17,165 nucleotides of DNA from Methanobacteriota archaeon (GTDB lineage: Archaea > Thermoplasmatota > Poseidoniia > Poseidoniales > Poseidoniaceae): positions 5,170 through 22,334 of the forward strand of contig PBOE01000015.1 of assembly GCA_002725275.1 (NCBI GenBank). Reading direction: 5' to 3'. Shown piece after piece: positions 3,901 through 15,709 of the stretch. The notes below the pieces were generated by a model that saw only the letters and a list, made by a program, of their open reading frames with translations, was not told the origin of the DNA and did not search any database. The first letter of the stretch is position 1. Each line of letters opens with the position of its first letter. The position numbers were made by a program, and so were the translations under genes.

Positions 3901-4384
3901 GGACGCCGACGGTGATGGCACTGCAGACGAATACGACCCGTGCCCGTGGGACCCTGAGGTGTCCCAAGGCTCCCGAACCACGGCGGTTTGCGGCATCACG
4001 TCCGACCCCAACCTTGCGGCAAACAACGACGGCGAAAGCGGTTCGTTCCTGAGCGGCGAGGGCGGCACGGTTCAAATCATGGGCGGCATCATCATCTTCT
4101 TGCTCGCCCTCATCATCGTTGCCCAAGTCGCCAAGACCGCCGGCAGGCGAAAGGCCATCTCCACAAAGCGTGACGATCAGCTCGCTCAGGCCTCGGTGGC
4201 CGAGGAAGAAGAGCGTCGACAAGCGTGGATTCAGCACTACATCGCTGAAGGTAACTACGCCGAAGCACGGGCGCTGGGTTGGGAAGGAACCCAAGGGCTG
4301 CCGGAGTGGAAGCAGTACGAAATGCAGCAGCAGGCTGCACAAGAAGCCGCCATTCCCACCATGATGGATCTTGAAAACCTGTGA
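953..4384 (+). CDS. Surface-anchored seven-bladed WD40-like propeller with TSP3-type Asp-rich stalk
   Basis: The ATG at 953 gives 1143 residues. It is preferred over the in-frame ATG at 914 because it follows the TATA box at leaderless spacing and starts a clean signal peptide (1-33, basic then hydrophobic, ending GVQA). One isolated TSP3-like unit (34-75, with DSDGDGVQD and DRDGDGTSD) comes first. A seven-bladed WD40-like propeller (about 85-410) follows; blades carry the recurrent FSPDG/WSPDG turn. Residues about 411-1005 form a stalk of Asp-rich repeats: 12 DAFPxDxxQW plus DxDGDGYGDN units, with Cys-paired CPxxxGxS...GCPDADGDG units between them. Such Asp loops bind calcium in the thrombospondin family. 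A single TM (about 1044-1063) and an 80-residue Gln/Glu/Ala-rich cytoplasmic tail end the protein. Predicted to be a membrane-anchored extracellular adhesion or binding protein; the ligand is unknown. The regulator gene begins 58 bp downstream. Confidence 0.88.
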   Translation: MANSGETQPHRKRGAVLLTFLFLVSVTSMGVQAADSDGDGVQDSADDCPWSAGTSTVDKDGCPDRDGDGTSDFNDGWVIGNPNFQNEYTITSSNDYYAVDYDPNGEFIVTGGEDGFVRIWNASTWTIVRSANTNTDVFGVDFSPDGMYVAAALNDDTINIYHSSNMTSLHGAISVDVGGNDQVNSVEFSPDSSSVAVAIGRDNGNQGTNGEVTVIDVQTGSELYAVNPNGEDRFFDVAHSPDGQYMALAGNSDIYIVNTSSGATTWTFTNPPAAVNAVAWSPDGNYISMCGGWEGQSASFDMYQYASGSWNRIWQKTTSTSCASTTFSADGSQVVAGMYWYQTDGNTARVYESNTGNQVDSFSGPRPGGCSSGNNNQCGVMYGIAWSPDSTHIVTANGRNDEGVYFWFADIDEDNDGYNTTDQGDGVVDAFPSDGTQWDDTDGDGYGDNPAPANEPDECITTPGTSTEDRYGCPDADGDGWSDAGDWAPNDSTQWVDADEDGYGDNYLFELDEYQLHVNQAGDAFPNDPTQWNDTDGDGYGDNYDNASWDTYRPAIWPGLLLDQANQPDAFPLERTQHMDSDGDWIGDNPNGDPADACPYAYGNSQYDRLGCPDADGDGYSDPTANWPSTTDCFGADAFPDDPTQWCDEDNDGFGSNPDGNNADDCPSNAGSSTIDRLGCADRDGDGYSNAGDPFPDDATQWSDRDGDNRGDNASGNNPDAFPDDTSQWKDSDGDGYGDNPGGFNGDAFPSDPTQWSDEDGDGYGDNTDGNAGDVCPLDYGESQAELSRGCPDSDLDGVTDPLDAFPDDPFQWADTDGDGYGDNTNVPSGDDCVEEFGKSYEKGRQGCPDADFDGYADVDDVFPNDFEQWEDSDGDGYGDNYYWENDTVADEENPGLFLTLRTQRGDAFPQIASQWSDIDGDGWGDNQSSSNRVDNFPLRSSQWLDFDGDGYGDNATGYQFDACYKVPGTSTTGDYEEYFGCPDADGDGTADEYDPCPWDPEVSQGSRTTAVCGITSDPNLAANNDGESGSFLSGEGGTVQIMGGIIIFLLALIIVAQVAKTAGRRKAISTKRDDQLAQASVAEEEERRQAWIQHYIAEGNYAEARALGWEGTQGLPEWKQYEMQQQAAQEAAIPTMMDLENL
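2237..3817 (+). repeat. Twelve 21-residue Asp-rich (TSP3-like) coding repeats
   Basis: Within the surface protein, twelve copies of a 63-base coding unit read D-[A/V/N]-F-P-x-x-x-x-Q-W followed by x-D-x-D-G-D-G-Y-G-D-N. The first copy begins at 2237 and the last ends at 3817. Most spacers are 6 to 30 residues, and several hold Cys-paired units ending GCPDADGDG. The fourth copy (QHMDSDGDWIGDN) and the sixth (DRDGDNRGDN) are degenerate. At DNA level the string GACGGCTACGGCGACAAC recurs nearly verbatim, which suggests recent duplication or gene conversion and also makes assembly error possible. Confidence 0.9.
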
Positions 4385-4442
4385 AAGCTCACACATGAAG
4401 TGCACCGCTGACCTTTCAAAGGGGAACGGGTCATGTTTTCAC

Positions 4443-6992
4443 ATGGGCGAGCAGCCGACAGGCCGATGGTTGGTGATGGCGGGGTTGCTGGTGACCTCGC
4501 TGTTCGTCGGCATGGTTTCGGCTGAGGAAGGCGAGGTGGCTTTGACGGCCGACGTCTTGAACGCTCCAGACCAACCTTGGTTTGAGCCCAGCCAACCGCT
4601 CGTTCTCGAACCGCAACTGGTCAACAACGGCCCGGACGCATCGCTTTCGATGAATCCTGCATGCCCCGTCGTCCTGAACGTCTACGACACCAACGGCACG
4701 ATGCTCGTGAACGGTTCGGCTGCATGCCCCCAGCGTGAACAGGGCTTGGACCTCTTTGCTGGCGAGCGACTCGACCTTGACCCGGTGACCTGGTCGATGA
4801 AAGATGAAGCGGGCGAATGGTTGGAGAGCGGCACCTACACCATCGAATTGCTTCACACCGCCGGTCCGTCCTTCACCACTCAAGCCACCATTCAAACACC
4901 CGTCATCATTCCTGCGGACCTCACCTATTCCGTTCAGACCACCCAACGCAGCGAAGGCGAGGCGGTGCTCCACCAGGTCAGTTTGCACAACCCTACGGAG
5001 AAAAGTGTCGATCTTAGCAACATCCTGCCCTGTCGATTTGAAGTGTCGGTGGACAACGTCCACCGGTTGGGGGCGCCGTGCACGGGCAGCGTCTCAAACC
5101 TGATGCCGGGCGAAGTCATGCAGGTTGAGCAGTTCATCGCACCGGCCACGTCCGCCGTCACCGTTTCAACGCCGGGTGAAACGCCCTTGTACACCTCCGA
5201 TGCACCTGAATCTGTCACCTCCAAGGCGGGTTCGCTGACAATGGCCCTCGCCCTCAGCGGCAACGAACTCCCCGCCTTTGGTCCAGGAGAAGTCATGGTC
5301 AGCGAAGTGCTTCTGATGTCGTCCAATCAAGCCACGCAGGTCGAATTCACTGATGCTTGCAAAGCCGAACTTTGGGTTGTCGACGACATGGGTGAGATCG
5401 TTTTTGACAGTCGCCTTGGAAAGACCTGCACCCCCATCGACCTCGAGCTCACGGTGAGCGCTGATGAACCCGAGCGCCTGTCCTTGCCCCAGTGGAACTT
5501 CTACGACGCTCAAGGCTGCGTGGTTGAACCTGGGACGTACACCGTCATCGCCGAGGTGCCGGAACACCAACTCATCATCAGTGACACCATCGAATTCTTT
5601 TCCATTGAAGACAACCCGTGCGCCACAACCGATGCGGCTCGCCTCTCAGCGACGCTGGAATGGCAGGACGAACAGACGGTTCGTCTCAACGCCGTGGCCT
5701 CCACCGGCGAAGCGCCTTACTTGCGCATGGCCCAGCCCTGCACCTTTGAAGTGGCCTTCGTGAACGAGGACGGCAACGTCGTCCACGTGTTCCAGACCCT
5801 TTGCGACGCCTACGACGGTCGCAAGCTCTTCCTGCCCGACGCTGCTCAGCCGCTTGAGTTTGACAACGTGGACATCAGCATGGTTCAGGAAGGCACGCCG
5901 CTCCTTCCCGACGGGTATTACACGCTTGAACTCACGATGCTGTCCACGTCGGTGTCCTCGGTCTCGCTTCCCGTCGCATGGCCCGCCGACCACGGGCAGA
6001 CGACGGTCGATGAAGCGGTGAGTGATGACGTCGAAACGTTCGAACTCACCGGCACGTGGAACGGCTTGTTGACCGAACAAGGCACCTGCTACGTCATGGA
6101 AGCGGACGACCAAACCTACCTCTTGTCCAGCGCCCGAACGCTTGGCTCCTGGCAACCCAGCGCTCAAAACCAAGGTGTCTATGTCGTGGTTGAAACCGAC
6201 CCGTCCCCTGCATGCAACGGCTATGTTGCTCCTTCTGTTGAGGTGATTGAGGTTCAAATGGAGCAACCGATAACGAGCGAAGCATCCGTTCTCGATCCTG
6301 TTGTCGAAGCGGCACCACCCAGCACCGTCGAATCCAACATCGTGGTATCGGCCGCCGTCATGGTCGTGACCGCTTCCCTGCTGTCGCTGCTGGTGGCCGT
6401 TACCATCACCAACGAGGGTTTGCGATGGCCTGCCACCGCCGCTGGTTTGTGGTTCCTCGGCCTGATCGGGAAAACCCACGAAACCACCGATGGCCGCTAT
6501 CAACGGGGTCGTCTGATGGGCTACCTCACGGCCAATCCTGGGTGCCACTTCCGTGCCCTCATGAGTGCGCTGGACATGAGCAACGGCCAGATCACGCATC
6601 ACCTCCGCATTTTGGAGGCTGAAGAGCACGTTTGGCGCAAGGGAGACGGGCGACTCGTTCGGTTCTACCCTCTCACCAGTCAACTTCATCCAAACACGAA
6701 CGAAGAGGACCTCCCCGTCCCTCCCCTTTCGCCCGACCCCAAGAGCCTGCAGGGCAAGATCCTGAACTTGCTCGATCAGGACGGTGGCCTGGGCCAATTC
6801 CCCACGCAAGCTGAACTCGCCTCTCGCCTCGAAAAGAGTCAACAGTTGATCTCCCACCACCTGCGCACCCTGCAGAAGTACGGCTTGGTCGAGCGCCGAA
6901 AGATGGGCGTCAAGAACCGGTACAAACTGACTCGCGAAGCGGTCTTCCTGTTGGAGACCAACGATGACTTTGCTCATGGCGACCTCGTCTGA
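4443..6992 (+). CDS. Membrane-anchored one-component regulator: four BsuPI-like ectodomains, TM, two winged helices
   Basis: The ATG at 4443 gives 849 residues starting MGEQPTGRW and a signal sequence ending MVSA (about 27). The in-frame ATG at 4371 would overlap the upstream gene and add a Cys-rich non-signal leader, so it is disfavoured. The ectodomain (28-630) contains four Ig-like segments resembling BsuPI. Each has a Cys pair: 74/95, 197/213, 306/329 and 433/454. Two segments end with the family-typical PGTYT or DGYYTLEL strand. Further Cys pairs are 359/393 and 549/591. A TM (about 632-654) is followed by a short hydrophobic stretch (659-676). Next come a winged helix (about 681-745, ANPGCHFRALMSALDMSNGQ then ITHHLRILE) and a second one (about 770-840, SQQLISHHLRTLQKYGLVE). 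Such proteins are thought to sense outside the membrane and bind DNA inside. The signal and targets are unknown. Its position 58 bp after the surface propeller gene suggests co-transcription. Confidence 0.82.
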   Translation: MGEQPTGRWLVMAGLLVTSLFVGMVSAEEGEVALTADVLNAPDQPWFEPSQPLVLEPQLVNNGPDASLSMNPACPVVLNVYDTNGTMLVNGSAACPQREQGLDLFAGERLDLDPVTWSMKDEAGEWLESGTYTIELLHTAGPSFTTQATIQTPVIIPADLTYSVQTTQRSEGEAVLHQVSLHNPTEKSVDLSNILPCRFEVSVDNVHRLGAPCTGSVSNLMPGEVMQVEQFIAPATSAVTVSTPGETPLYTSDAPESVTSKAGSLTMALALSGNELPAFGPGEVMVSEVLLMSSNQATQVEFTDACKAELWVVDDMGEIVFDSRLGKTCTPIDLELTVSADEPERLSLPQWNFYDAQGCVVEPGTYTVIAEVPEHQLIISDTIEFFSIEDNPCATTDAARLSATLEWQDEQTVRLNAVASTGEAPYLRMAQPCTFEVAFVNEDGNVVHVFQTLCDAYDGRKLFLPDAAQPLEFDNVDISMVQEGTPLLPDGYYTLELTMLSTSVSSVSLPVAWPADHGQTTVDEAVSDDVETFELTGTWNGLLTEQGTCYVMEADDQTYLLSSARTLGSWQPSAQNQGVYVVVETDPSPACNGYVAPSVEVIEVQMEQPITSEASVLDPVVEAAPPSTVESNIVVSAAVMVVTASLLSLLVAVTITNEGLRWPATAAGLWFLGLIGKTHETTDGRYQRGRLMGYLTANPGCHFRALMSALDMSNGQITHHLRILEAEEHVWRKGDGRLVRFYPLTSQLHPNTNEEDLPVPPLSPDPKSLQGKILNLLDQDGGLGQFPTQAELASRLEKSQQLISHHLRTLQKYGLVERRKMGVKNRYKLTREAVFLLETNDDFAHGDLV

Positions 6993-7079: not shown

Positions 7080-9905
7080 ATGACAGCCGACGCAGAGCCC
7101 GTGGACGAAGTCGGCTGGCAACGACGTTGGGACGATGCCGGCTTGTTTCATGCGGACATCCACGGCGACCGACCCAAGTTCTACTGCCTCGAGATGTACC
7201 CTTATCCGTCCGGAAAAATGCACATGGGCCACGTGCGAAACTACTCCATCGGCGATGCTGTTGCCCGGTTCAAGCGATTGATGGGTTTTGACGTGCTCTA
7301 CCCGATGGGCTTCGATTCGTTCGGGATGCCCGCAGAAAACGCTGCCATCTCTGAAGGTGGCCACCCTCACGACATTACGGAACGGAACATGGCCTCCATC
7401 ACCGAGCAAATCAAGCGAATGGGGTTCTCCTACGACTGGCGTCGCACCCTCAAGAGCCACGACCCTCGCTACTACAAGTGGAACCAGTGGTTCTTCACCA
7501 AGTTCATGGAAAACGGATTGGCCACCCGTGAATTTTCCCCCGTCAACTGGTGCGAATCTTGCAGCACCGTGCTCGCCAACGAACAGGTCAAGGCCGGGCG
7601 ATGCTGGCGTTGCAACGGCCCGGTCGCCCAGAAGGAGATGAATCAATGGTTCCTCAACCTCCCTGCGTACGGGCAGGAACTGCAGGACGGGCTTGATACC
7701 ATCGGCTTTCCCGAGCACGTCAAATCCCTCCAACGCGATTGGCTCGGCCGATCAGAGGGCGCCAACATTCTGTTTGGCATCGTCGACGACGACCGGGACA
7801 TCGAGGTGTTCACCACCCGCCCGGACACCCTGTTTGGTTCTACCTTTGTCACCCTCGCCCCCGAACACCCGCTTGCCGAATCCTTGGTGGCGGGAACCGA
7901 ACACGAGGCGGCCTGGAAGGCGCTCTACGATGAAGTGGCGTCCATGGCGGAGTTCGACCGCATCAAGAACATGAACAAGAAGAAAGGCGTGTTCTCTGGA
8001 CGGTACGCTGTTCACCCCTTGACGGGTGAACACGTGCCCATCTGGATCGGCAATTTCGTCATCGCCACCTACGGCACGGGCGCTGTCATGGCCGTCCCAG
8101 GCCACGATGAGCGGGACCACGACTTTGCCAGGCAGTATGAGATTCCCATCAAGCGCGTGCTCGTGATGGAAGAAGGCGGTGACGCCCAAGCCCCCTTGGA
8201 CAAGGCCGAAGTTGACCTCGGTTGGATGGTCAACAGCCCAATGGAAGGGTTTGACGGCCTGTACGGTGCGGAAGCCAAGCAGGCCGTCTGCAGCGCCCTT
8301 GAACAGCGCGGCCGCGGCCACCAAACCATCAACTGGAAGATTCGACCGTGGTTGATTTCCCGTCAGCGGTATTGGGGCACCCCCATTCCCGTGATTCACT
8401 GTAAGGCCTGCGGCGCCGTTCCCGTTCCCGAGGAGGACCTCCCGGTTGAACTCCCCCGAGACGTGGTGTTCGGTCATGGAAACCCGTTGACCACGTCGGA
8501 GGCGTTCCTGAACGTCGACTGCCCAACTTGCGGCGAGCCCGCCCGCCGGGAAACCGACACCATGGACACGTTCATTGATTCCTCGTGGTACTTCCTTCGC
8601 TACACCGACGCTCTGAACGACGAGACGTCCTTTGCCAAACAGGTGGCCAACCACTGGATGCACGTGGATTTCTACTGCGGGGGCATCGAACACGCACAGA
8701 TGCACCTCATTTACGCCCGTTTCATGACCAAGGCGCTCCGGGACCTTGGCTTGGTTGACGTGGATGAACCGTTCAACGAGCTTCTCTGTCAGGGCATGGT
8801 CAACAAAGCCGCTCCGTTTTGCCAGCCGTGCGGTGTGACCCTTTCGACCGCGCATGAAGGGCAACCGTGCCCACACTGCGGCAGTGAATTGGGTTCTCGT
8901 TCAGCCAAGATGAGCAAGTCATTGGGCAACACGGTTTCCCCCGAGGACATGATCGCTCGCTACGGTGCCGACACGGTCCGCTTGTTCATCCTCTTCGCTG
9001 CCAACCCGACGGCCGGCATGGACTGGTCCGATGCAGCCCTCGATGCCAACCACCGCGTGATGGTGCAAATGCGAGGCATGCCGGCGCAACTGATGGCATG
9101 GTCAGGCGGAGCCTCACCGATGGACGGATGGCTGGAGGCTCGTTTTACTCAGCGCGTGCACGAGTTCGTCAAGGCCATGGACGAGTACGACTTGCGCCGT
9201 GCGGTCGAACTCTCCCACTACGAGGTCATCAAGGACATCAACTGGTACACGCGTCGCGGCGGACAAAACCTCGACCTCGCCCGGCGCTGGTTACCGTTGT
9301 GGGCGCAGATGGTTTCGGTGTCAACACCTCACCTGGCAGAGGAATGGTGGGCGGCCCTCGATGGCACCACCGGGTTGGTCGCCGGCAGCACCATGGCCGT
9401 CCCTGCGCCTCTTTCAGACGACCAAGAAACGGTGCTGGCTGGGGAACAGTACGTACGGGACGTGCTCGAGCAAGCCCGTAAGGTGCGCGTGGTCGCCGAG
9501 CGCCATCTCGGACAGCCTGCATCAGCAGCCACGTTTGTGGTCGCTCCATCCTGGAAACGAACCATGGCCCGTGCTGCGCTGGACTTCATCCAACAAGGGG
9601 GTCATCCAAAGCAATTCATTCCCGTGCTGCAGGACCTGCCGTTTGCGCAGGGGGAGCGCAAGGGCGAAATCATGGGTTTTTGGGGCAAGAAAATGCTGCC
9701 CCAGGTCTTCAAATGGGACGATGCTTCGAAAGCGGTGGTCGTCTCGTCCCTCGATGAAACATCGGTGCTGGAGAGCGCCAAGGCCTTCATCGCCCAAGAA
9801 CTTCAACTCGAGAACGTCACGGTCGTCCTCGGTGAGAGCGATGCGGACGAATCCGGGCGCGCCGGTTCGGCGATGCCGCTGTCGCCCGCCGTGGTCTATG
9901 CTTGA
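7080..9905 (+). CDS. leuS: Leucyl-tRNA synthetase (bacterial-type core)
   Basis: Charges tRNA-Leu with leucine in the cytoplasm and edits mischarged tRNA. The 941-residue class Ia enzyme shows the HIGH motif as HMGH (48-51) within YPYPSGKMHMGH and the KMSKS loop at 610-614 (AKMSKSLGN). The CP1 editing domain lies at about 222-415, with TTRPDTLFG (245-253) and GTGAVMAVPGHDERD (332-346). Cys pairs at 158/161 and 175/178 form a ZN-1-like module placed before CP1. This order and GFDSFGMPAENAA are features of bacterial-type LeuRS; archaeal enzymes insert CP1 differently. Further CxxC pairs occur at 441/444, 481/484, 581/584 and 597/600. The tail (about 800-941) ends AMPLSPAVVYA, recalling archaeal LeuRS C-termini rather than bacterial ones. 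The start is supported by GGTGA 6 nt upstream. The stop at 9903-9905 abuts the stop of the convergent gene. Confidence 0.97.
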   Translation: MTADAEPVDEVGWQRRWDDAGLFHADIHGDRPKFYCLEMYPYPSGKMHMGHVRNYSIGDAVARFKRLMGFDVLYPMGFDSFGMPAENAAISEGGHPHDITERNMASITEQIKRMGFSYDWRRTLKSHDPRYYKWNQWFFTKFMENGLATREFSPVNWCESCSTVLANEQVKAGRCWRCNGPVAQKEMNQWFLNLPAYGQELQDGLDTIGFPEHVKSLQRDWLGRSEGANILFGIVDDDRDIEVFTTRPDTLFGSTFVTLAPEHPLAESLVAGTEHEAAWKALYDEVASMAEFDRIKNMNKKKGVFSGRYAVHPLTGEHVPIWIGNFVIATYGTGAVMAVPGHDERDHDFARQYEIPIKRVLVMEEGGDAQAPLDKAEVDLGWMVNSPMEGFDGLYGAEAKQAVCSALEQRGRGHQTINWKIRPWLISRQRYWGTPIPVIHCKACGAVPVPEEDLPVELPRDVVFGHGNPLTTSEAFLNVDCPTCGEPARRETDTMDTFIDSSWYFLRYTDALNDETSFAKQVANHWMHVDFYCGGIEHAQMHLIYARFMTKALRDLGLVDVDEPFNELLCQGMVNKAAPFCQPCGVTLSTAHEGQPCPHCGSELGSRSAKMSKSLGNTVSPEDMIARYGADTVRLFILFAANPTAGMDWSDAALDANHRVMVQMRGMPAQLMAWSGGASPMDGWLEARFTQRVHEFVKAMDEYDLRRAVELSHYEVIKDINWYTRRGGQNLDLARRWLPLWAQMVSVSTPHLAEEWWAALDGTTGLVAGSTMAVPAPLSDDQETVLAGEQYVRDVLEQARKVRVVAERHLGQPASAATFVVAPSWKRTMARAALDFIQQGGHPKQFIPVLQDLPFAQGERKGEIMGFWGKKMLPQVFKWDDASKAVVVSSLDETSVLESAKAFIAQELQLENVTVVLGESDADESGRAGSAMPLSPAVVYA

Positions 9906-12602
9906 TTAAGCCTCTTCATCCATTGAAGGTCGAATCGGTGGGACGGTATCAGGCGCAATCTTTGGGAGTGGCGGGCCGGGCCGTTGCGAATTGGTGTAGA
10001 GCGCGTAGACGATGACCGCTCCAGCCAGCAGGAAGAGGACGGTGGAGAGGCTCACGCCGGATTCCTCGGTTTCGCTCGCCGGGTTGACGCTGGTGGTTTC
10101 ACACCCTCGCTCGTCGACCACGCTGTCCACCGGTGAATTGCCGCAGAAGTCGTAAGCGTTCACGACGCCGTCGCCGTCGTCGTCAAGTTGGTACTGACTG
10201 CAACCGTTGGACGACACCGTTTCTTCGCTGTCGGTGTTTGGACAGCGATCCAACGGGTCAAGAACGCCGTCCTGATCGTCATCGTCGTCTTCCACGGCGT
10301 CAATGCATCCGTCGCCGTCGTTGTCTTGACCGGGCGGAGCCGTCCCGATGAGCCCTCGAGGACAGCGATCAAAGGGATCGCTGATCCCGTCCTGATCGTC
10401 GTCGTTGTCTTCAAGGTCGTCATGACACCCGTCCCCGTCGTTATCGTACAGAGCAGCGTCGCCGCCCCAGTTTTTCTCACCGAGAGGGCAGGCGTCGTTG
10501 ACGTCCAAGACCGCATCGTCGTCGTCATCCTCGTCCGAGGTTTCGTCCAAGCAACCGTCGGCATCGTAATCGTTCCACGAAAAGGACACCCACGAGCGAA
10601 TGTCGTTCGGGCAGTTGTCATCGGGAATGGCAATGCCGTCTCCGTCCTTGTCGAGGTCGCAAGCATCACCGAGACCATCGTTGTCGAGGTCGGCTTGGGT
10701 TGGGTTGGCCAGCGCAGGGCAGTTGTCCGCTTGGTCAACGAAGCCGTCCCCGTCGTTGTCTTCGTCGGAGCATCCGTCGGTTTCAATGTCGGTCTCCTCG
10801 GTCGAGACCCAGCCCACCGGCCCTTTCGGGCACAGATCGTATTCATCGAACACACCGTCCTCGTCGTCGTCAAGGTCTTCGGTCAAGTCCCGGCACCCGT
10901 CGCTGTCATGGTCAGATACGTCGTTCGCAACCCATCCCACGTCCCCGGTAGGGCAATCATCGTTCACGTCCAACACCCCGTCGCCGTCAACATCATCGTC
11001 GCATGCGTCACCGTATGCATCAGCGTCGAGGTTGGCTTGGTCGCTGTTGGCGAGCTTGGGGCAGTTGTCCAACCCGTCAAGGACCCCGTCGAGGTCGAGG
11101 TCGGTCTCGTACAGCCAAATGCCCATGTCGTAATGGTCGCGTTGCACGAAGGCGTGAGCGCCGTAGGTTCCATCGCTGTTGGAGATAAACGAGATCACGG
11201 GTGAACCGGTGGCGCTCATGCTCAGGGAATCCGGGAGGTCGTCCCCTCCACCGCCTGCTGCAATGGCCCAATCCCACGTGCTGTTGGCTTGCCTTCGTCC
11301 GAGGAACAGGTCGTGATGGTTGCCGTCGTTCATGCCGTCGATGTCCGTCAGCGTGTACTCGCCGAGGACCAAGGTTCCCGTGGTTTTTCCAAGGATGAGC
11401 GAGTCACCCTGCTCGGTGATGTGAATCGCTGCGGCATGGTCAGCAGCACCGCCACCGAACCCGGTGGCGTGCAACCACTCGCCCTGGTCGGAGATGTGAG
11501 CCTCGTAGAAATCAACCCAGATCGAGGGGCCGATTTCGAGGTCGCCGAAGGTCATGTTTTGGAGGAAATCACCGACGATGGCAACACCACCGTCGTGGCG
11601 TCCGTCGCAATCCGTTGCCGATGCATCACTTGTCCCTCCGGCGCTCTTGGCCCAGAGCCAACCGCCGGAATTGTACTGTGCAACGGCAACGTGTGTTCCT
11701 CCACTGCTGGTGAGCTCGTGATCTCCAAAACTCACGAGTTCCAAGAAGGACGTGGCGAGGTACGTCTGTCCGCTGTAATCCGAGCAGAGCGAGCCGATGT
11801 TCTCAAGGTTCTGACTTGAGAACACGGTGTGCATGTGCAGGTGGTTGCCGGTGCTGTCAAGCACCAGCACGGCGATGGAATCTTCCGACACGCTCCCCGG
11901 TGCGAGTTCATCACCCGACGTCAAAGAGTCTCGGTGCAACACCGCCAGGTGAACCTCGTCGTTGGGACCGACCATCATGTCGATGACTGAAAGTTGGTAC
12001 GGGTTAGAGAGGCTCGTCGCCCACATCCATTCACCCGCAGGGGTCATTCCTGCGACAAAGACGCCGTTTTCATGGTCGTCAGCGGATTTGTTGACCGGTG
12101 GCAATTCACCGAGGGTCATGTTGCAGGCGTCCCCCTTGGTCATGTCGCAAAACGTTCCAGCAATGATGACGGTTCCGTCGCTTGTCCGGTCCATGGCTTC
12201 AATCCCGTCGAGCCCGCTGCTCGTTCCTGCCATGGTACCGGTCCACGTGCCGTTTTCATCCAGCCAGCCCAAAAAGAAATCAAGGCCAAAACTGGAGTCG
12301 TCGCTGGAAAATCCAATCACATCGCCGTGGAATTCGACGTTTTGCTCAAACAAGCCTCCGACCAACATGCTGCCGTTAGGGAGCGGGACCATGGCGCTGA
12401 CCCGTTCGTAACTAGCGCCGCCTGCACTCGCCAGCCAGCCGCTGACGTTCTCCGCTTGGCTCATCCTTGGCTCGGTTGAGGCTGGCAGCGCGTCGCCGCC
12501 TTCGTGGTTGGCCATTGACAGGGGCGTCAGCACCATCATGCTCACGACCAGCATCGGAAGGATGCCACGGATTGTCATGGCGGAACGACGATGCTTTCGC
12601 AT
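9906..12602 (-). CDS. Surface-anchored seven-bladed propeller with TSP3 repeats and C-terminal TM
   Basis: The product is 898 residues starting at ATG 12600-12602; ATG at 12576-12578 is an alternative. A signal peptide (1-31: RKHRR then hydrophobic, ending SMA) leads to about 445 residues that divide into seven repeats of 55-75 residues. Each has a GGxxD-type opening, a GSxLVxGxF-type core and an ending such as GEWMWA, GGWLWA or STWDWA. This resembles SBBP-type propeller repeats. Residues 501-834 hold nine Cys-paired Asp-rich units. Two are textbook thrombospondin type 3 (NCPALANPTQADLDNDGLGD); the others are the longer CPxG...GW...DGC variant. A Ser/Glu linker, a TM (about 850-870) and a short Pro-rich cytoplasmic tail (RPGPPLPKIAPD) follow. 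Predicted to be an extracellular, calcium-stabilised binding or adhesion protein with unknown ligand. It shares architecture but not evident sequence with the propeller protein at 953-4384. Confidence 0.87.
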   Translation of the reverse strand: MRKHRRSAMTIRGILPMLVVSMMVLTPLSMANHEGGDALPASTEPRMSQAENVSGWLASAGGASYERVSAMVPLPNGSMLVGGLFEQNVEFHGDVIGFSSDDSSFGLDFFLGWLDENGTWTGTMAGTSSGLDGIEAMDRTSDGTVIIAGTFCDMTKGDACNMTLGELPPVNKSADDHENGVFVAGMTPAGEWMWATSLSNPYQLSVIDMMVGPNDEVHLAVLHRDSLTSGDELAPGSVSEDSIAVLVLDSTGNHLHMHTVFSSQNLENIGSLCSDYSGQTYLATSFLELVSFGDHELTSSGGTHVAVAQYNSGGWLWAKSAGGTSDASATDCDGRHDGGVAIVGDFLQNMTFGDLEIGPSIWVDFYEAHISDQGEWLHATGFGGGAADHAAAIHITEQGDSLILGKTTGTLVLGEYTLTDIDGMNDGNHHDLFLGRRQANSTWDWAIAAGGGGDDLPDSLSMSATGSPVISFISNSDGTYGAHAFVQRDHYDMGIWLYETDLDLDGVLDGLDNCPKLANSDQANLDADAYGDACDDDVDGDGVLDVNDDCPTGDVGWVANDVSDHDSDGCRDLTEDLDDDEDGVFDEYDLCPKGPVGWVSTEETDIETDGCSDEDNDGDGFVDQADNCPALANPTQADLDNDGLGDACDLDKDGDGIAIPDDNCPNDIRSWVSFSWNDYDADGCLDETSDEDDDDDAVLDVNDACPLGEKNWGGDAALYDNDGDGCHDDLEDNDDDQDGISDPFDRCPRGLIGTAPPGQDNDGDGCIDAVEDDDDDQDGVLDPLDRCPNTDSEETVSSNGCSQYQLDDDGDGVVNAYDFCGNSPVDSVVDERGCETTSVNPASETEESGVSLSTVLFLLAGAVIVYALYTNSQRPGPPLPKIAPDTVPPIRPSMDEEA
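10101..11102 (-). repeat. Nine Cys-paired TSP3-like coding repeats
   Basis: Residues 501-834 of the surface protein consist of tandem D-x-D-x-D-G-V-x-D units, each followed by Asp-x-Cys-Pro. Seven units are of the long type (CPxG, Trp-rich spacer, D-x-D-x-DGC) or degenerate forms of it. Two are the canonical short type ending GDACD. The last unit lacks Pro after Cys (DFCGNS). The spacing fits calcium-binding thrombospondin-type repeats; metal binding is inferred. Confidence 0.88.
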
Positions 12603-12674: not shown

Positions 12675-13718
12675 ATGGGTGATGGCTCAACGCCGAATCG
12701 AGGCCGAAAACAACGAAGCCGTTCATCGTCCAAACGCCGCTATGGCGGTCCAAAGCGCACGCAACAAATGGAACGATTTGCTCGTGATGTGGCGTCCATG
12801 AACACCGTCGCCGAGCAACGGTTTGACCGCACCCCCCTTCCCATGGCGTTCCCGAAGGACATGGAAGCGCCCCGGACGTTCCACCTTTCGTGGACACCCG
12901 AACCGGTCCCGCTGAACACCGAAGAACGGGTCGCCTCCATGGTGGTCAAGCGCGGGGACTTCGGATGGCTTTCAGACGACCGCGTGGACAACATCGCCAA
13001 GCAACTCGATTCGGAGAACATGACCCTCGATCAAGCGCTCTCGCTGCGGTCGGCGCTGCTGCAGCAAAAAACGGTCTATTCCCATCACCGTTTGAAGTCA
13101 AAAGCGAAGGAACTCGCACGACGCTACCGCAACGGGACGTCCATTGTCGATCTCTCAAAAGAGTATGATTTCCCACCCGTGAACATCTTCCGCGTGGTGC
13201 TCGAGGCGATGGGTTGGTCCAAGAAACGAATCAAGGAGAGTTTGCGGAACCCCTCGAGCATGAAGCAGCGTGAACGTGAGGAATTTGAAGCCGCAGAGGC
13301 CATCGATCGGGTGTCAAGCGTCGATCAGTCCGAAACGCAAGTCAAGGCCGACCTGTTCGAGGACATCCTTGCTGATTGGTTTGAAGCGCAAGGCATCCGG
13401 TTGCGTCGTCAACCCGAGATGGTGAAGGAACAATCCGAACTGCTGGGCCGACCCGTTCGAACACCGGACTTGCTGTTTCTCGATCACGTCTACATCAACG
13501 ATCAACCGGTCGCTTGGATCGATGCCAAGCACTTCTACGGGGCCGACGTGGAATTCCAACGCAAGAAGATGAAGAAGCAGATGAATCGCTACATCGAGGA
13601 GTGGGGCAGCGGAGCAATCATGTTTCGCCACGGGTTCTCAGAGAACCTCTTCTTGCCGGGTGTCCTGATGCTGGATGCCAGCCCCATTGACCTCACCCGC
13701 CTCAATCAGGACGACTGA
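12675..13718 (+). CDS. TPD-motif PD-(D/E)XK nuclease-like protein, CDIN1/C15orf41 homologue
   Basis: From ATG 12675 the protein is 347 residues. In-frame ATGs at 12591, 12768 and 12798 are alternatives; the first would overlap the divergent gene and none has a clear RBS. After a basic N-terminus (RGRKQRSRSSSKRR) comes a helical HTH-like region, with LARRYRNGTSIVDLSKEYDF then PVNIFRVVLEAMG (about 146-180). It matches in order the human CDIN1 N-terminal region as I recall it. The C-terminal domain has TPDLLF (263-268), then WIDAKHFYG (281-289). This is the TPD motif and D-x-K of the PD-(D/E)XK fold; human CDIN1 has TPDFIL and WIESKASFG. The stretch WGSGAIMFRHGFSENL follows, again collinear with the human protein. 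It is probably a nucleic-acid-cleaving or binding protein; the substrate is unknown. It starts divergently from a surface-protein gene and overlaps the 3' end of the pantoate kinase gene by 17 bp. Confidence 0.82.
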   Translation: MGDGSTPNRGRKQRSRSSSKRRYGGPKRTQQMERFARDVASMNTVAEQRFDRTPLPMAFPKDMEAPRTFHLSWTPEPVPLNTEERVASMVVKRGDFGWLSDDRVDNIAKQLDSENMTLDQALSLRSALLQQKTVYSHHRLKSKAKELARRYRNGTSIVDLSKEYDFPPVNIFRVVLEAMGWSKKRIKESLRNPSSMKQREREEFEAAEAIDRVSSVDQSETQVKADLFEDILADWFEAQGIRLRRQPEMVKEQSELLGRPVRTPDLLFLDHVYINDQPVAWIDAKHFYGADVEFQRKKMKKQMNRYIEEWGSGAIMFRHGFSENLFLPGVLMLDASPIDLTRLNQDD

Positions 13719-14733
13719 CCGGCGCAACGGACGTGATGAGGCAGGCGTACCCCCGCTCACGAACACCGGCCGCCAAGGCCTCCAACTCTCGCTCGGTAGG
13801 ATGGTTGTCCAAATTCCGAGGGAGAACGGCCACGGAACTTCCCAGCATGCACAGGCGAACCGCCATCGTCGCTTGCCATCCACCGTCTTGAACTGCGAGA
13901 AGCGTGCTTCGGTGGATGCGGACACGCTCGTCCTCATCCAGCATGCCTGAGGCCGCCGCAAAGGTTCTCGCTTCTCGAAGGAGGTCAGCCCAACGCGCCT
14001 CGGACCACGGTTCGGCGGCCAAGGCAGCCACCCCTTCCTCGCCCGCCGCCGTGATGGAGCGTTGCCAATCGGGGTCGTCGATGTAGGTCGATGTGTGACG
14101 TTCTTCCGTGGGATCCCACGCCAGCAGGACCGGAACGGTTGCCTCAAACGAGGTCGCTTGACCCGGCCAACCGGGAGCACCCGGTGCCAAACGGAGCTCA
14201 ACGCCGCCGACGGAGGCGCCCAAGACGTCGCCCAAACCCGCACCGTGCAACCGTTCAATCCGGTGAGCGATTTTGAGGTATTGTGTCGGTCGGCCCCGCC
14301 CGGTGAGGGCGTGGATGACCCGACCCACAGCGATCAGACCGGCGGCGGACATGCCAAAGCCCTGGCTGGTCGGGCATTCAATTTGGATATCAATGTCCAC
14401 GTGTTCGTCATCTCGCAACAGGGTGGCATCGTGGCAGGCTTCGATGAAATCCAGGTAGAGGTCGATTTGCTCGATGTGTTCGTCGTGCATGTTTCGAACG
14501 GTGACAACGGAGGGCTCGGGGGTTTGCTTTTGCAGCGGTGTGTCCGGTTTGATCCCCGCCATGGGTTCGGTTGTGGCGGTGGGTCGACGGTGGAGGGTTC
14601 CGGTTGCTTCGACACCGTGGTGAATCGAAAACCCAGCGCCTTTGCTGCCCTGGCTCCGGCTGAGGGCGGTGGTCTTGTCAACGGTGAACAGGAGGGTGAT
14701 GTGGCCACCGCAGCGTTGCGTAACGGTGGTCAT
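13702..14733 (-). CDS. Pantoate kinase (GHMP family), archaeal CoA biosynthesis
   Basis: Phosphorylates pantoate to 4-phosphopantoate, the first of two steps by which archaea replace bacterial PanC/PanK in coenzyme A synthesis. From ATG 14731-14733 it has 343 residues. The N-terminal GHITLLFTVD with QGSKGAGFSIHHGVEA (about 10-43) matches the family's opening strand and glycine turn. The GHMP ATP loop is PTSQGFGMSAAG (121-132). GAGLGDVLGASVGG (164-177) is the conserved second glycine segment. The frame stays open up to a TTG at 14782-14784 that overlaps the rpoD end, but the ATG leaves only 10 residues before the conserved core and is preferred. The ATG lies 43 nt after the rpoD stop, so the gene is probably the last of the ribosomal operon. 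Its 3' end overlaps the convergent TPD-protein gene. Mevalonate kinase-like paralogues share the fold, but the end motifs favour pantoate kinase. Confidence 0.85.
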   Translation of the reverse strand: MTTVTQRCGGHITLLFTVDKTTALSRSQGSKGAGFSIHHGVEATGTLHRRPTATTEPMAGIKPDTPLQKQTPEPSVVTVRNMHDEHIEQIDLYLDFIEACHDATLLRDDEHVDIDIQIECPTSQGFGMSAAGLIAVGRVIHALTGRGRPTQYLKIAHRIERLHGAGLGDVLGASVGGVELRLAPGAPGWPGQATSFEATVPVLLAWDPTEERHTSTYIDDPDWQRSITAAGEEGVAALAAEPWSEARWADLLREARTFAAASGMLDEDERVRIHRSTLLAVQDGGWQATMAVRLCMLGSSVAVLPRNLDNHPTERELEALAAGVRERGYACLITSVAPVSRPD

Positions 14734-14776
14734 CCCTTCGTCCGAAGGAGCGCTGGCTGATGAATGCCGCGATGCC

Positions 14777-15709
14777 TCAGGCAAGAGCGGAGGCCAGGTC
14801 CTCGCTCAGGTTGTTGAACCGGTTCTTCAGTTCCTCCAGGGCCATGTTGAAGGCCGTGACCGGGTCGAGGCTACCGTCGGTCTCGTAGGAGAACACGTAG
14901 GCTCCATCAACCGGTTCGAGGGTGATGGCGTCGTCAAAGGCGTCTTCTCGACCGGTGCCTTCACCCACTTGATGCAGGGCCTTTTCGAGGTCCATCACGT
15001 GGTTGATGTTGGTCAATTTCTTGTCCTTTCCAAACAGTTTGGCGTCGATGGCCGTGCCGTCAGAGGTTGTGAGACCAAGGTCGAACAGCACGCTGGCCTT
15101 CTTTGGCTTGTTGAGGACGGCGGTGCGGTGCGGTCGGAAGCCGACGGCGGCCACGGGGGACCACTTGGCGTGGTCGCGGCCTCGGCCGAGGACGGCGAAG
15201 GCGTAGAACTCGAGGAACTGTCCCTTGGACAGCACCGTCAGCGGAATCTGCTTGTGTTCGTCGCGGATGTCAAAGACGGGGTCGGAAATGGTGGTGATGT
15301 CTCCGGCGTACACCGTTTTGAAGTTCTCTTCAGCATCGGCTGCGGGGCCTCGAGCCGAGAGGGTGTAGAGCACTTGGCACATGGGGCAACCCTTGTCCTT
15401 CTCAACAACGTCCTGGCAGTTGACGCATTCGTTGGGGAACACCAGCCCTTCGTCGAGGTTGGTGGGAATGGGGATCATGGCCAAGCGGTGGGCGAGGACT
15501 TCGTCGGGGAGCACGTTGACCGATTCCACGACTTCGCCCTTGTTGTCTTGCGTGACACCTTGGGAAAAATCCACGCGAGTGATGGCGAGCTTGGGGACAT
15601 CGGCGATCAGGGCTCGGCGAATAGCGTTGACCTGGGAAGCGTCGGTTTCGCTGATGAGGATACGGATCTCGTGGCCTCGTGGCCAGCCTTCAACAATCTC
15701 GGTCTTCAT
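14777..15709 (-). CDS. rpoD: DNA-directed RNA polymerase subunit D (Rpo3)
   Basis: This is the archaeal counterpart of Rpb3 and of the bacterial alpha N-terminal domain; it dimerises with subunit L to nucleate polymerase assembly. The start at ATG 15707-15709 (310 residues, MKTEIVEGW) is preferred. AAGGAG lies 9 nt upstream, and other archaeal D subunits begin close to this point. An ATG at 15725-15727, overlapping the rps11 stop as TGATG, would add six residues. ETDASQVNAIRRALIADVP (21-39) is the conserved alpha-motif helix. Cys 95, 98, 108 and 111 (CVNC...CPMCQ) sit where Rpb3 has its zinc loop before the LTL strand. There is no other Cys, so the D3 region (about 193-259) lacks the Cys set that holds a [4Fe-4S] cluster in Sulfolobus. 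The C-terminal helix (TAFNMALEELKNRFNNL) completes the dimerisation domain. Confidence 0.96.
   Translation of the reverse strand: MKTEIVEGWPRGHEIRILISETDASQVNAIRRALIADVPKLAITRVDFSQGVTQDNKGEVVESVNVLPDEVLAHRLAMIPIPTNLDEGLVFPNECVNCQDVVEKDKGCPMCQVLYTLSARGPAADAEENFKTVYAGDITTISDPVFDIRDEHKQIPLTVLSKGQFLEFYAFAVLGRGRDHAKWSPVAAVGFRPHRTAVLNKPKKASVLFDLGLTTSDGTAIDAKLFGKDKKLTNINHVMDLEKALHQVGEGTGREDAFDDAITLEPVDGAYVFSYETDGSLDPVTAFNMALEELKNRFNNLSEDLASALA

What the first reader, a model, noticed from the sequence alone, without database searches (positions are those of the whole stretch)
12675..13718. Archaeal full-length homologue of human CDIN1 (C15orf41), a disease-linked TPD nuclease-like protein
Seen: TPDLLF followed 12 residues later by WIDAKHFYG, then WGSGAIMFRHGF, preceded by an HTH-like helical region with ARRYRNG...VDLSKEYDF. 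Known: human CDIN1, mutated in congenital dyserythropoietic anaemia type I, has TPDFIL, WIESKASFG and a similar tail, and is related to PD-(D/E)XK nucleases such as archaeal Holliday-junction resolvases. Inference: collinearity across both halves suggests an ancestral archaeal protein whose substrate could explain the poorly understood human one. The catalytic Asp and D-x-K are intact.
Basis: partly seen in the sequence, partly recalled or inferred. Interest (0 to 1): 0.75.

Follow-up and report, generated by a model that had tools for sequence, protein, structure and literature searches.

The report
Archaeal relative of anaemia protein CDIN1
A marine archaeon carries a full-length, apparently catalytically intact but strongly diverged relative of the human anaemia-linked protein CDIN1; archaeal relatives were already known, but this one belongs to a second, distinct type whose nearest relative found outside the archaea is in a diatom.

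Summary
ORF 12675-13718 (+, 347 aa) matches Pfam TPD (PF14811; 66.9 bits, cut-off 27). Both halves align with the ~256-aa archaeal TPD proteins that NCBI already names 'C15orf41 family' (N half E 7e-15, C half E 1e-18). The predicted fold (pLDDT 88) resembles PD-(D/E)XK nucleases. E229, D265, K285 and Q302 are invariant in 270 of 270 relatives; residue 283 is D in 121 of 121 Poseidoniales-type and E in 149 of 149 other archaeal proteins.

'Archaeal CDIN1 homologue' is not new: PMC7092493 reported Euryarchaeota orthologues in 2020. What I did not find in print is that archaeal TPD splits into two well-separated types. The window has the diverged type, near-universal in its kin (117 of 121 marker-positive genomes). 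A diatom gene model (44% identity) and one viral predicted structure lie nearer this type than the other.

Most likely role: a housekeeping metal-dependent endonuclease. TPD does not track histones (found in 14 of 184 genomes) and is no general stand-in for Hjc (present in 117 of 122 genomes with this type). Activity and substrate remain unshown. Animal CDIN1 could not be compared directly.

The parts
12675..13718 (+). Poseidoniales-type TPD (CDIN1/C15orf41 family) protein, 347 aa
   Evidence: ORF; PF14811 E 2.2e-18; AlphaFold2 pLDDT 88.0
12675..12905 (+). N-terminal extension (res. 1-77), basic and Arg/Ser-rich at its start, absent from the ~256-aa archaeal form
   Evidence: secondary-structure comparison of the two models; alignment A1
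12906..13319 (+). all-helical HTH-like half (res. 78-215); its order of helices matches residues 1-127 of the ~256-aa form
   Evidence: N-half profile comparison E 7.2e-15 over res. 124-213; 20 column-shuffled controls reach at most 4.3% probability; res. 78-123 matched by order of predicted helices only
13320..13715 (+). PD-(D/E)XK-like nuclease domain (res. 216-347): E229, T263-P264-D265, D283-A-K285, Q302, Y306
   Evidence: invariance counts; structure matches
13702..14784 (-). neighbour: GHMP kinase (diverged pantoate-kinase-like), convergent with TPD; ORF ends overlap by 17 bp
   Evidence: next to TPD (gap between matches -10 to 55 bp) in 79 of 80 loci, the exception's contig ends there
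9906..12602 (-). neighbour: Asp-rich repeat protein, TSP3-like by eye, divergent (head to head) with TPD, 72 bp between the ORFs
   Evidence: a match on the opposite strand within 950 bp upstream of TPD in 66 of 80 loci; not scanned against Pfam

Best explanation
The gene encodes a diverged archaeal member of the TPD/CDIN1 family: an N-terminal helical HTH-like nucleic-acid-binding half followed by a PD-(D/E)XK metal-dependent endonuclease domain. Inferred mechanism: the HTH-like half positions a nucleic acid, and E229, D265, D283 and K285 bind one or two divalent metals and cut a phosphodiester bond. It is a housekeeping gene of Poseidoniales, most likely acting on DNA in genome maintenance beside Hjc rather than in its place. 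The family's ancestral job did not need PF00808 histones; the Codanin-1/ASF1 link would be a later eukaryotic addition. Shown: family, collinearity with other archaeal members, predicted fold, invariance, retention. Inferred: catalysis, DNA as substrate, the pathway, the order of events.
Confidence: 0.5

Rival explanations
1. Same family and fold, but the substrate is RNA: an RNA-processing endonuclease.
For: Basic Arg/Ser-rich N-terminal tail in the Poseidoniales type. Codanin-1 resembles CNOT1, the scaffold of an RNA deadenylase, and Sedor and Shao suggest by analogy that it may control substrate access for CDIN1 (PMC11911400, passages).
Against: Structural neighbours are mostly DNA nucleases or CRISPR ancillary nucleases, though fold does not fix substrate. 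The basic tail is absent from the ~256-aa form.
Confidence: 0.2
2. A stand-in for the Holliday-junction resolvase Hjc.
For: PD-(D/E)XK-like fold. Among genomes with the ~256-aa type 32 of 116 have no Hjc hit. TPD sits directly before a membrane Cas4-like nuclease gene in 19 of the 50 genomes I compared, and 15 of these 19 have no Hjc hit. An Hjc protein from a related genome found 0 of 37 Hjc-negative, TPD-positive genomes but 8 of 8 controls, its own source included.
Against: 117 of 122 genomes with the window's TPD type also have Hjc. Over all 389, Hjc is missing about as often with TPD (37 of 238) as without (24 of 151). The 15 of 19 may be a single loss in related genomes (several share gene order). 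No PF01870 match for this protein.
Confidence: 0.07
3. A defence (restriction-like) nuclease.
For: Structural neighbours include restriction enzymes and CRISPR ancillary nucleases.
Against: One match per genome in 235 of 238 genomes, near-universal in the window's kin, fixed neighbour. No sequence hit in phages or IMG/VR (window protein and ~256-aa type) or in plasmids (~256-aa type only). Padloc was not run.
Confidence: 0.05
4. No longer a nuclease: a catalytically silent nucleic-acid or protein binder.
For: Repeated failure to detect activity in the human protein (PMC7261414).
Against: Full invariance of the catalytic set across both types, with an acidic residue kept at 283 even where D and E swap.
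Confidence: 0.12

Closest known systems
TPD family, Pfam PF14811 / CDIN1 (C15orf41)
   Same: profile match well over cut-off; TPD motif; helical half then nuclease half; catalytic residues
   Different: diverged type: 24-30% identity to the ~256-aa archaeal form, 77-residue N-terminal extension, insert before TPD, W-I-D-A-K in place of W-I-E-S-K; Codanin-1 is reported from eukaryotes only (PMC7092493)
~256-aa archaeal TPD proteins ('C15orf41 family protein', Methanomassiliicoccales and other Thermoplasmatota)
   Same: collinearity, fold, catalytic set
   Different: 126-168 bits to PF14811 against 82 or less; no N-terminal extension; E-S-K motif
Diatom gene model P0327 (eukprot label jgi/Psemu1/210285)
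   Same: 44% identity over 99% of the 174-aa query; same insert before TPD; W-I-D-x-K; groups with the Poseidoniales type at 100/100
   Different: W-I-D-C-K; lies outside sampled archaeal diversity; only 198 aa
Archaeal Holliday-junction resolvase Hjc (PF01870)
   Different: no sequence match; Hjc has no HTH half (recall); both genes coexist in 201 of 238 TPD-positive genomes
Viral predicted proteins A0A8F8SNR0, A0A167RJG3 (Powai lake megavirus, 'TPD domain-containing'), A0A2L2DJP4 (mimivirus, 'CDAN1-interacting nuclease 1')
   Same: Foldseek match to the window model over 222-293 columns (E 6e-24 to 2e-8)
   Different: 17-29% identity; sequences not held here

Membership tests
TPD family (PF14811) | profile score over the curated cut-off | tested here: met
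   66.9 bits, cut-off 27
TPD family (PF14811) | conserved TPD motif | tested here: met
   T263-P264-D265; T and D kept in 270 of 270, P in 269 of 270
TPD family (PF14811) | N-terminal helical half collinear with other members | tested here: met
   against archaeal members only: N half E 7.2e-15, 20 shuffled controls at most 4.3% probability
CDIN1 | direct full-length similarity to animal CDIN1 | tested here: inconclusive
   no animal sequence held; viral proteins named TPD/CDIN1 match by fold over 222-290 columns
CDIN1 | binds Codanin-1 | not testable with these tools
   needs protein interaction assays
PD-(D/E)XK nucleases | predicted core fold | tested here: met
PD-(D/E)XK nucleases | catalytic E, D, (D/E)-x-K | tested here: met
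   270 of 270 aligned sequences; superposition on a solved active site not done
PD-(D/E)XK nucleases | metal-dependent cleavage | not testable with these tools
   none reported for any family member in the papers seen
Hjc (PF01870) | profile match | tested here: not met
   no PF01870 hit at E<=1
AraC/XylS-like HTH | profile match to an HTH family | tested here: inconclusive
   no Pfam HTH family at E<=1 for the window protein; region predicted all-helical

The most novel reading that the evidence does not exclude
TPD/CDIN1 exists as two anciently separated types, each with an archaeal and a non-archaeal branch: a ~256-aa E-S-K type (Methanomassiliicoccales and relatives, and presumably animal CDIN1) and a D-x-K type (Poseidoniales, diatoms, and a viral protein). 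Eukaryotes or their viruses would then have gained CDIN1 at least twice from different archaea, and diatoms, which are reported to have Codanin-1, would pair it with the Poseidoniales type.
Probability: 0.35. Interest if true: 0.7.

Novelty: new variant of a known kind. Interest (0 to 1): 0.42.

Why it matters
Loss of CDIN1 is lethal to mouse embryos and its mutations cause congenital dyserythropoietic anaemia, yet its function is unknown and no nuclease activity has been published (PMC11911400 and PMC13370696, passages). Archaeal members in genomes without recognised histones show that the family can work without them. That separates a putative nuclease function from the Codanin-1/ASF1 function and offers small, stand-alone proteins for assays. 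If the diatom pairing holds, comparing the two types would help show which surface Codanin-1 uses.

Tried and rejected
Fusion of TPD to another domain: open frames of about 540-700 aa in some genomes looked like fusions. Read, their upstream parts are low-complexity read-through, and in one of the three ~700-aa cases (L146) the start found gives 294 aa with the TPD part at its usual place. Rejected by eye; no domain scan was made of the upstream parts.

Viral or plasmid origin: no relative in IMG/VR with the window protein, A2 or A1, none by motif, none in phages; plasmids searched only with the ~256-aa protein, no match. Only predicted viral structures matched.

Solved structures: no significant relative by sequence. 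The best hit, 3kdq (E 0.014), covers about 36 residues, and I treat it as chance. Neither profile found a CDIN1 chain in the PDB copy.

Histone link in archaea: not supported. TPD is present in 9 of the 14 histone-positive genomes and in 12 of the 20 histone-negative genomes that were listed, out of 170 (status read). Only PF00808 was searched.

Hjc replacement: see rivals.

Operon partners: in 20 loci of the ~256-aa type, a same-strand Cas4-like gene follows TPD in 8 and a same-strand pyridine-nucleotide oxidoreductase precedes it in 9 (families). In the window neither flanking gene is on TPD's strand.

Papers: searches for 'TPD domain' with archaea and nuclease, and for PF14811, found none. 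PMC3762094 (Babbs 2013) is not held; I know it only through citing papers.

Full report
It matches Pfam TPD, PF14811, at 66.9 bits against a cut-off of 27, and 907 database proteins at E<=0.001, of which the best 120 were listed. The window is from Poseidoniales, judged from its named relatives and shared gene order. The TPD gene is flanked by genes on the other strand: a GHMP kinase follows it, ends nearly touching (-10 to 55 bp between matches), in 79 of 80 loci, and in the exception the contig ends; a match to the window's Asp-rich repeat protein lies within 950 bp upstream in 66 of 80.

Two types of archaeal TPD. In 389 Thermoplasmatota genomes PF14811 occurs in 238, with one match in 235 of them. 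The best E-values fall into two sets with a wide gap: 116 genomes at 9.7e-37 or better and 122 at 4.9e-23 or worse (split by hand on E-value). The first set are the ~256-aa proteins that NCBI names 'C15orf41 family protein', 126-168 bits. The second is the window's type, 82 bits or less. By the window's RpoD as a marker (E<=1e-60), 121 genomes are close kin and 117 of these have this TPD type; 4 have the marker only and 5 have this TPD type without the marker. In the ~256-aa type the motif is W-(I/V)-E-S-K, in the Poseidoniales type W-(I/L)-D-A-K, without exception at the D/E position in the 149 and 121 sequences aligned (these are the best hits of two searches plus 29 loci, so some are near-copies).

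Kinship of the two types along their length. Profile comparison aligns residues 124-341 of the window protein with 30-247 of the ~256-aa form, probability 99.7%, E 7.5e-27. The N half alone gives E 7.2e-15 and the C half alone 1.4e-18; 20 column-shuffled versions of the N half reached at most 4.3% probability. AlphaFold2 models (pLDDT 88.0 and 95.5) show the same order of helices and strands from window residue 80 on, with residues 1-77 as an addition.

Relatives outside archaea. Both models match three viral predicted structures at E<=0.001, two of them named TPD or CDIN1. The best, A0A8F8SNR0, is nearer the window's type (E 6.2e-24, 29% identity over 293 columns) than the ~256-aa type (E 7.9e-16, 20% over 280); its virus is not named in the table. 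The two named ones do not separate the types clearly. A search with a 174-aa profile of the Poseidoniales type found P0327, a gene model labelled jgi/Psemu1 (which I recall as the diatom Pseudo-nitzschia multiseries), 44% identity over 99%, E 4.3e-54 (120 of 226 hits listed). It scores 82 bits to PF14811, like the Poseidoniales type. Two metagenomic proteins of unnamed origin group with it at 98/97. In a 46-row tree this group lies with the Poseidoniales type against the ~256-aa type at 100/100; whether it lies inside or beside the archaeal group is not resolved (57/60), and the tool warns that long branches meet there. Contamination of the diatom genome is unlikely, because the sequence lies outside the sampled archaeal diversity, but it is not excluded. 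No animal sequence could be placed.

What is already known. PMC7092493 (passages and section 7) reports C15orf41 orthologues in Euryarchaeota and in protists including diatoms and oomycetes, which also have Codanin-1, and notes that human-archaeal similarity (E 1e-34) exceeds human-choanoflagellate similarity (1e-12). PMC6519365 (passages) mentions archaea and viruses. PMC7261414 (passages) reports failed nuclease assays on many substrates. My searches found no paper on two archaeal types or on Poseidoniales TPD (open-licence PMC library only; I read passages of seven papers and not every paper listed).

Function. PF00808 histone hits were found in 14 of 184 Thermoplasmatota genomes (13 over cut-off; control positive in M. 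jannaschii, H. volcanii and M. acetivorans); 9 of these 14 have TPD, as do 12 of the 20 histone-negative genomes listed. So TPD in this phylum does not track these histones. Hjc is present in 201 of 238 TPD-positive genomes: 117 of 122 with the window's type and 84 of 116 with the ~256-aa type. It is missing about as often with TPD (37 of 238) as without (24 of 151), so TPD is no general substitute. In 19 of 50 compared genomes the ~256-aa TPD gene is followed on the same strand by a Cas4/PDDEXK_1-like nuclease gene with membrane stretches by eye. Fifteen of the 19 lack a detectable Hjc, which may be a single loss. I take a housekeeping, metal-dependent endonuclease acting on DNA as the most likely role (0.5), with RNA as the main rival (0.2).

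Noticed in passing
L117:4934-5917 (-), and 18 other genomes: Cas4/PDDEXK_1-like nuclease with membrane stretches and a Cys cluster (by eye) directly downstream of the ~256-aa TPD gene; relatives, many of them partial matches, in 251 of 389 Thermoplasmatota genomes.
   Followed up: partly
window 7080-9905: LeuRS carries the PF13603 editing domain, which I recall as the bacterial type; unusual for an archaeon and possibly a transfer.
   Followed up: no
window 4371-6992: 873-aa protein with C-terminal winged-HTH hits (HVO_0163_N, ArsR, MarR) after a long extracellular-looking part and a hydrophobic stretch (by eye): possible membrane-anchored regulator.
   Followed up: no
window 13702-14784 (-): GHMP kinase scoring 66 bits against pantoate kinase (cut-off 380), beside rpoD: a diverged pantoate kinase or another GHMP kinase.
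   Followed up: no
P0006: A Poseidoniales-like TPD protein (84% identity) is deposited under a Verrucomicrobiales MAG, probably mis-binned.
   Followed up: no
15 of 19 genomes with the TPD/Cas4-like pair: Apparent lack of Hjc; an Hjc protein from a related genome found none in 37 Hjc-negative genomes, while 8 of 8 controls (its own source included) were found.
   Followed up: partly
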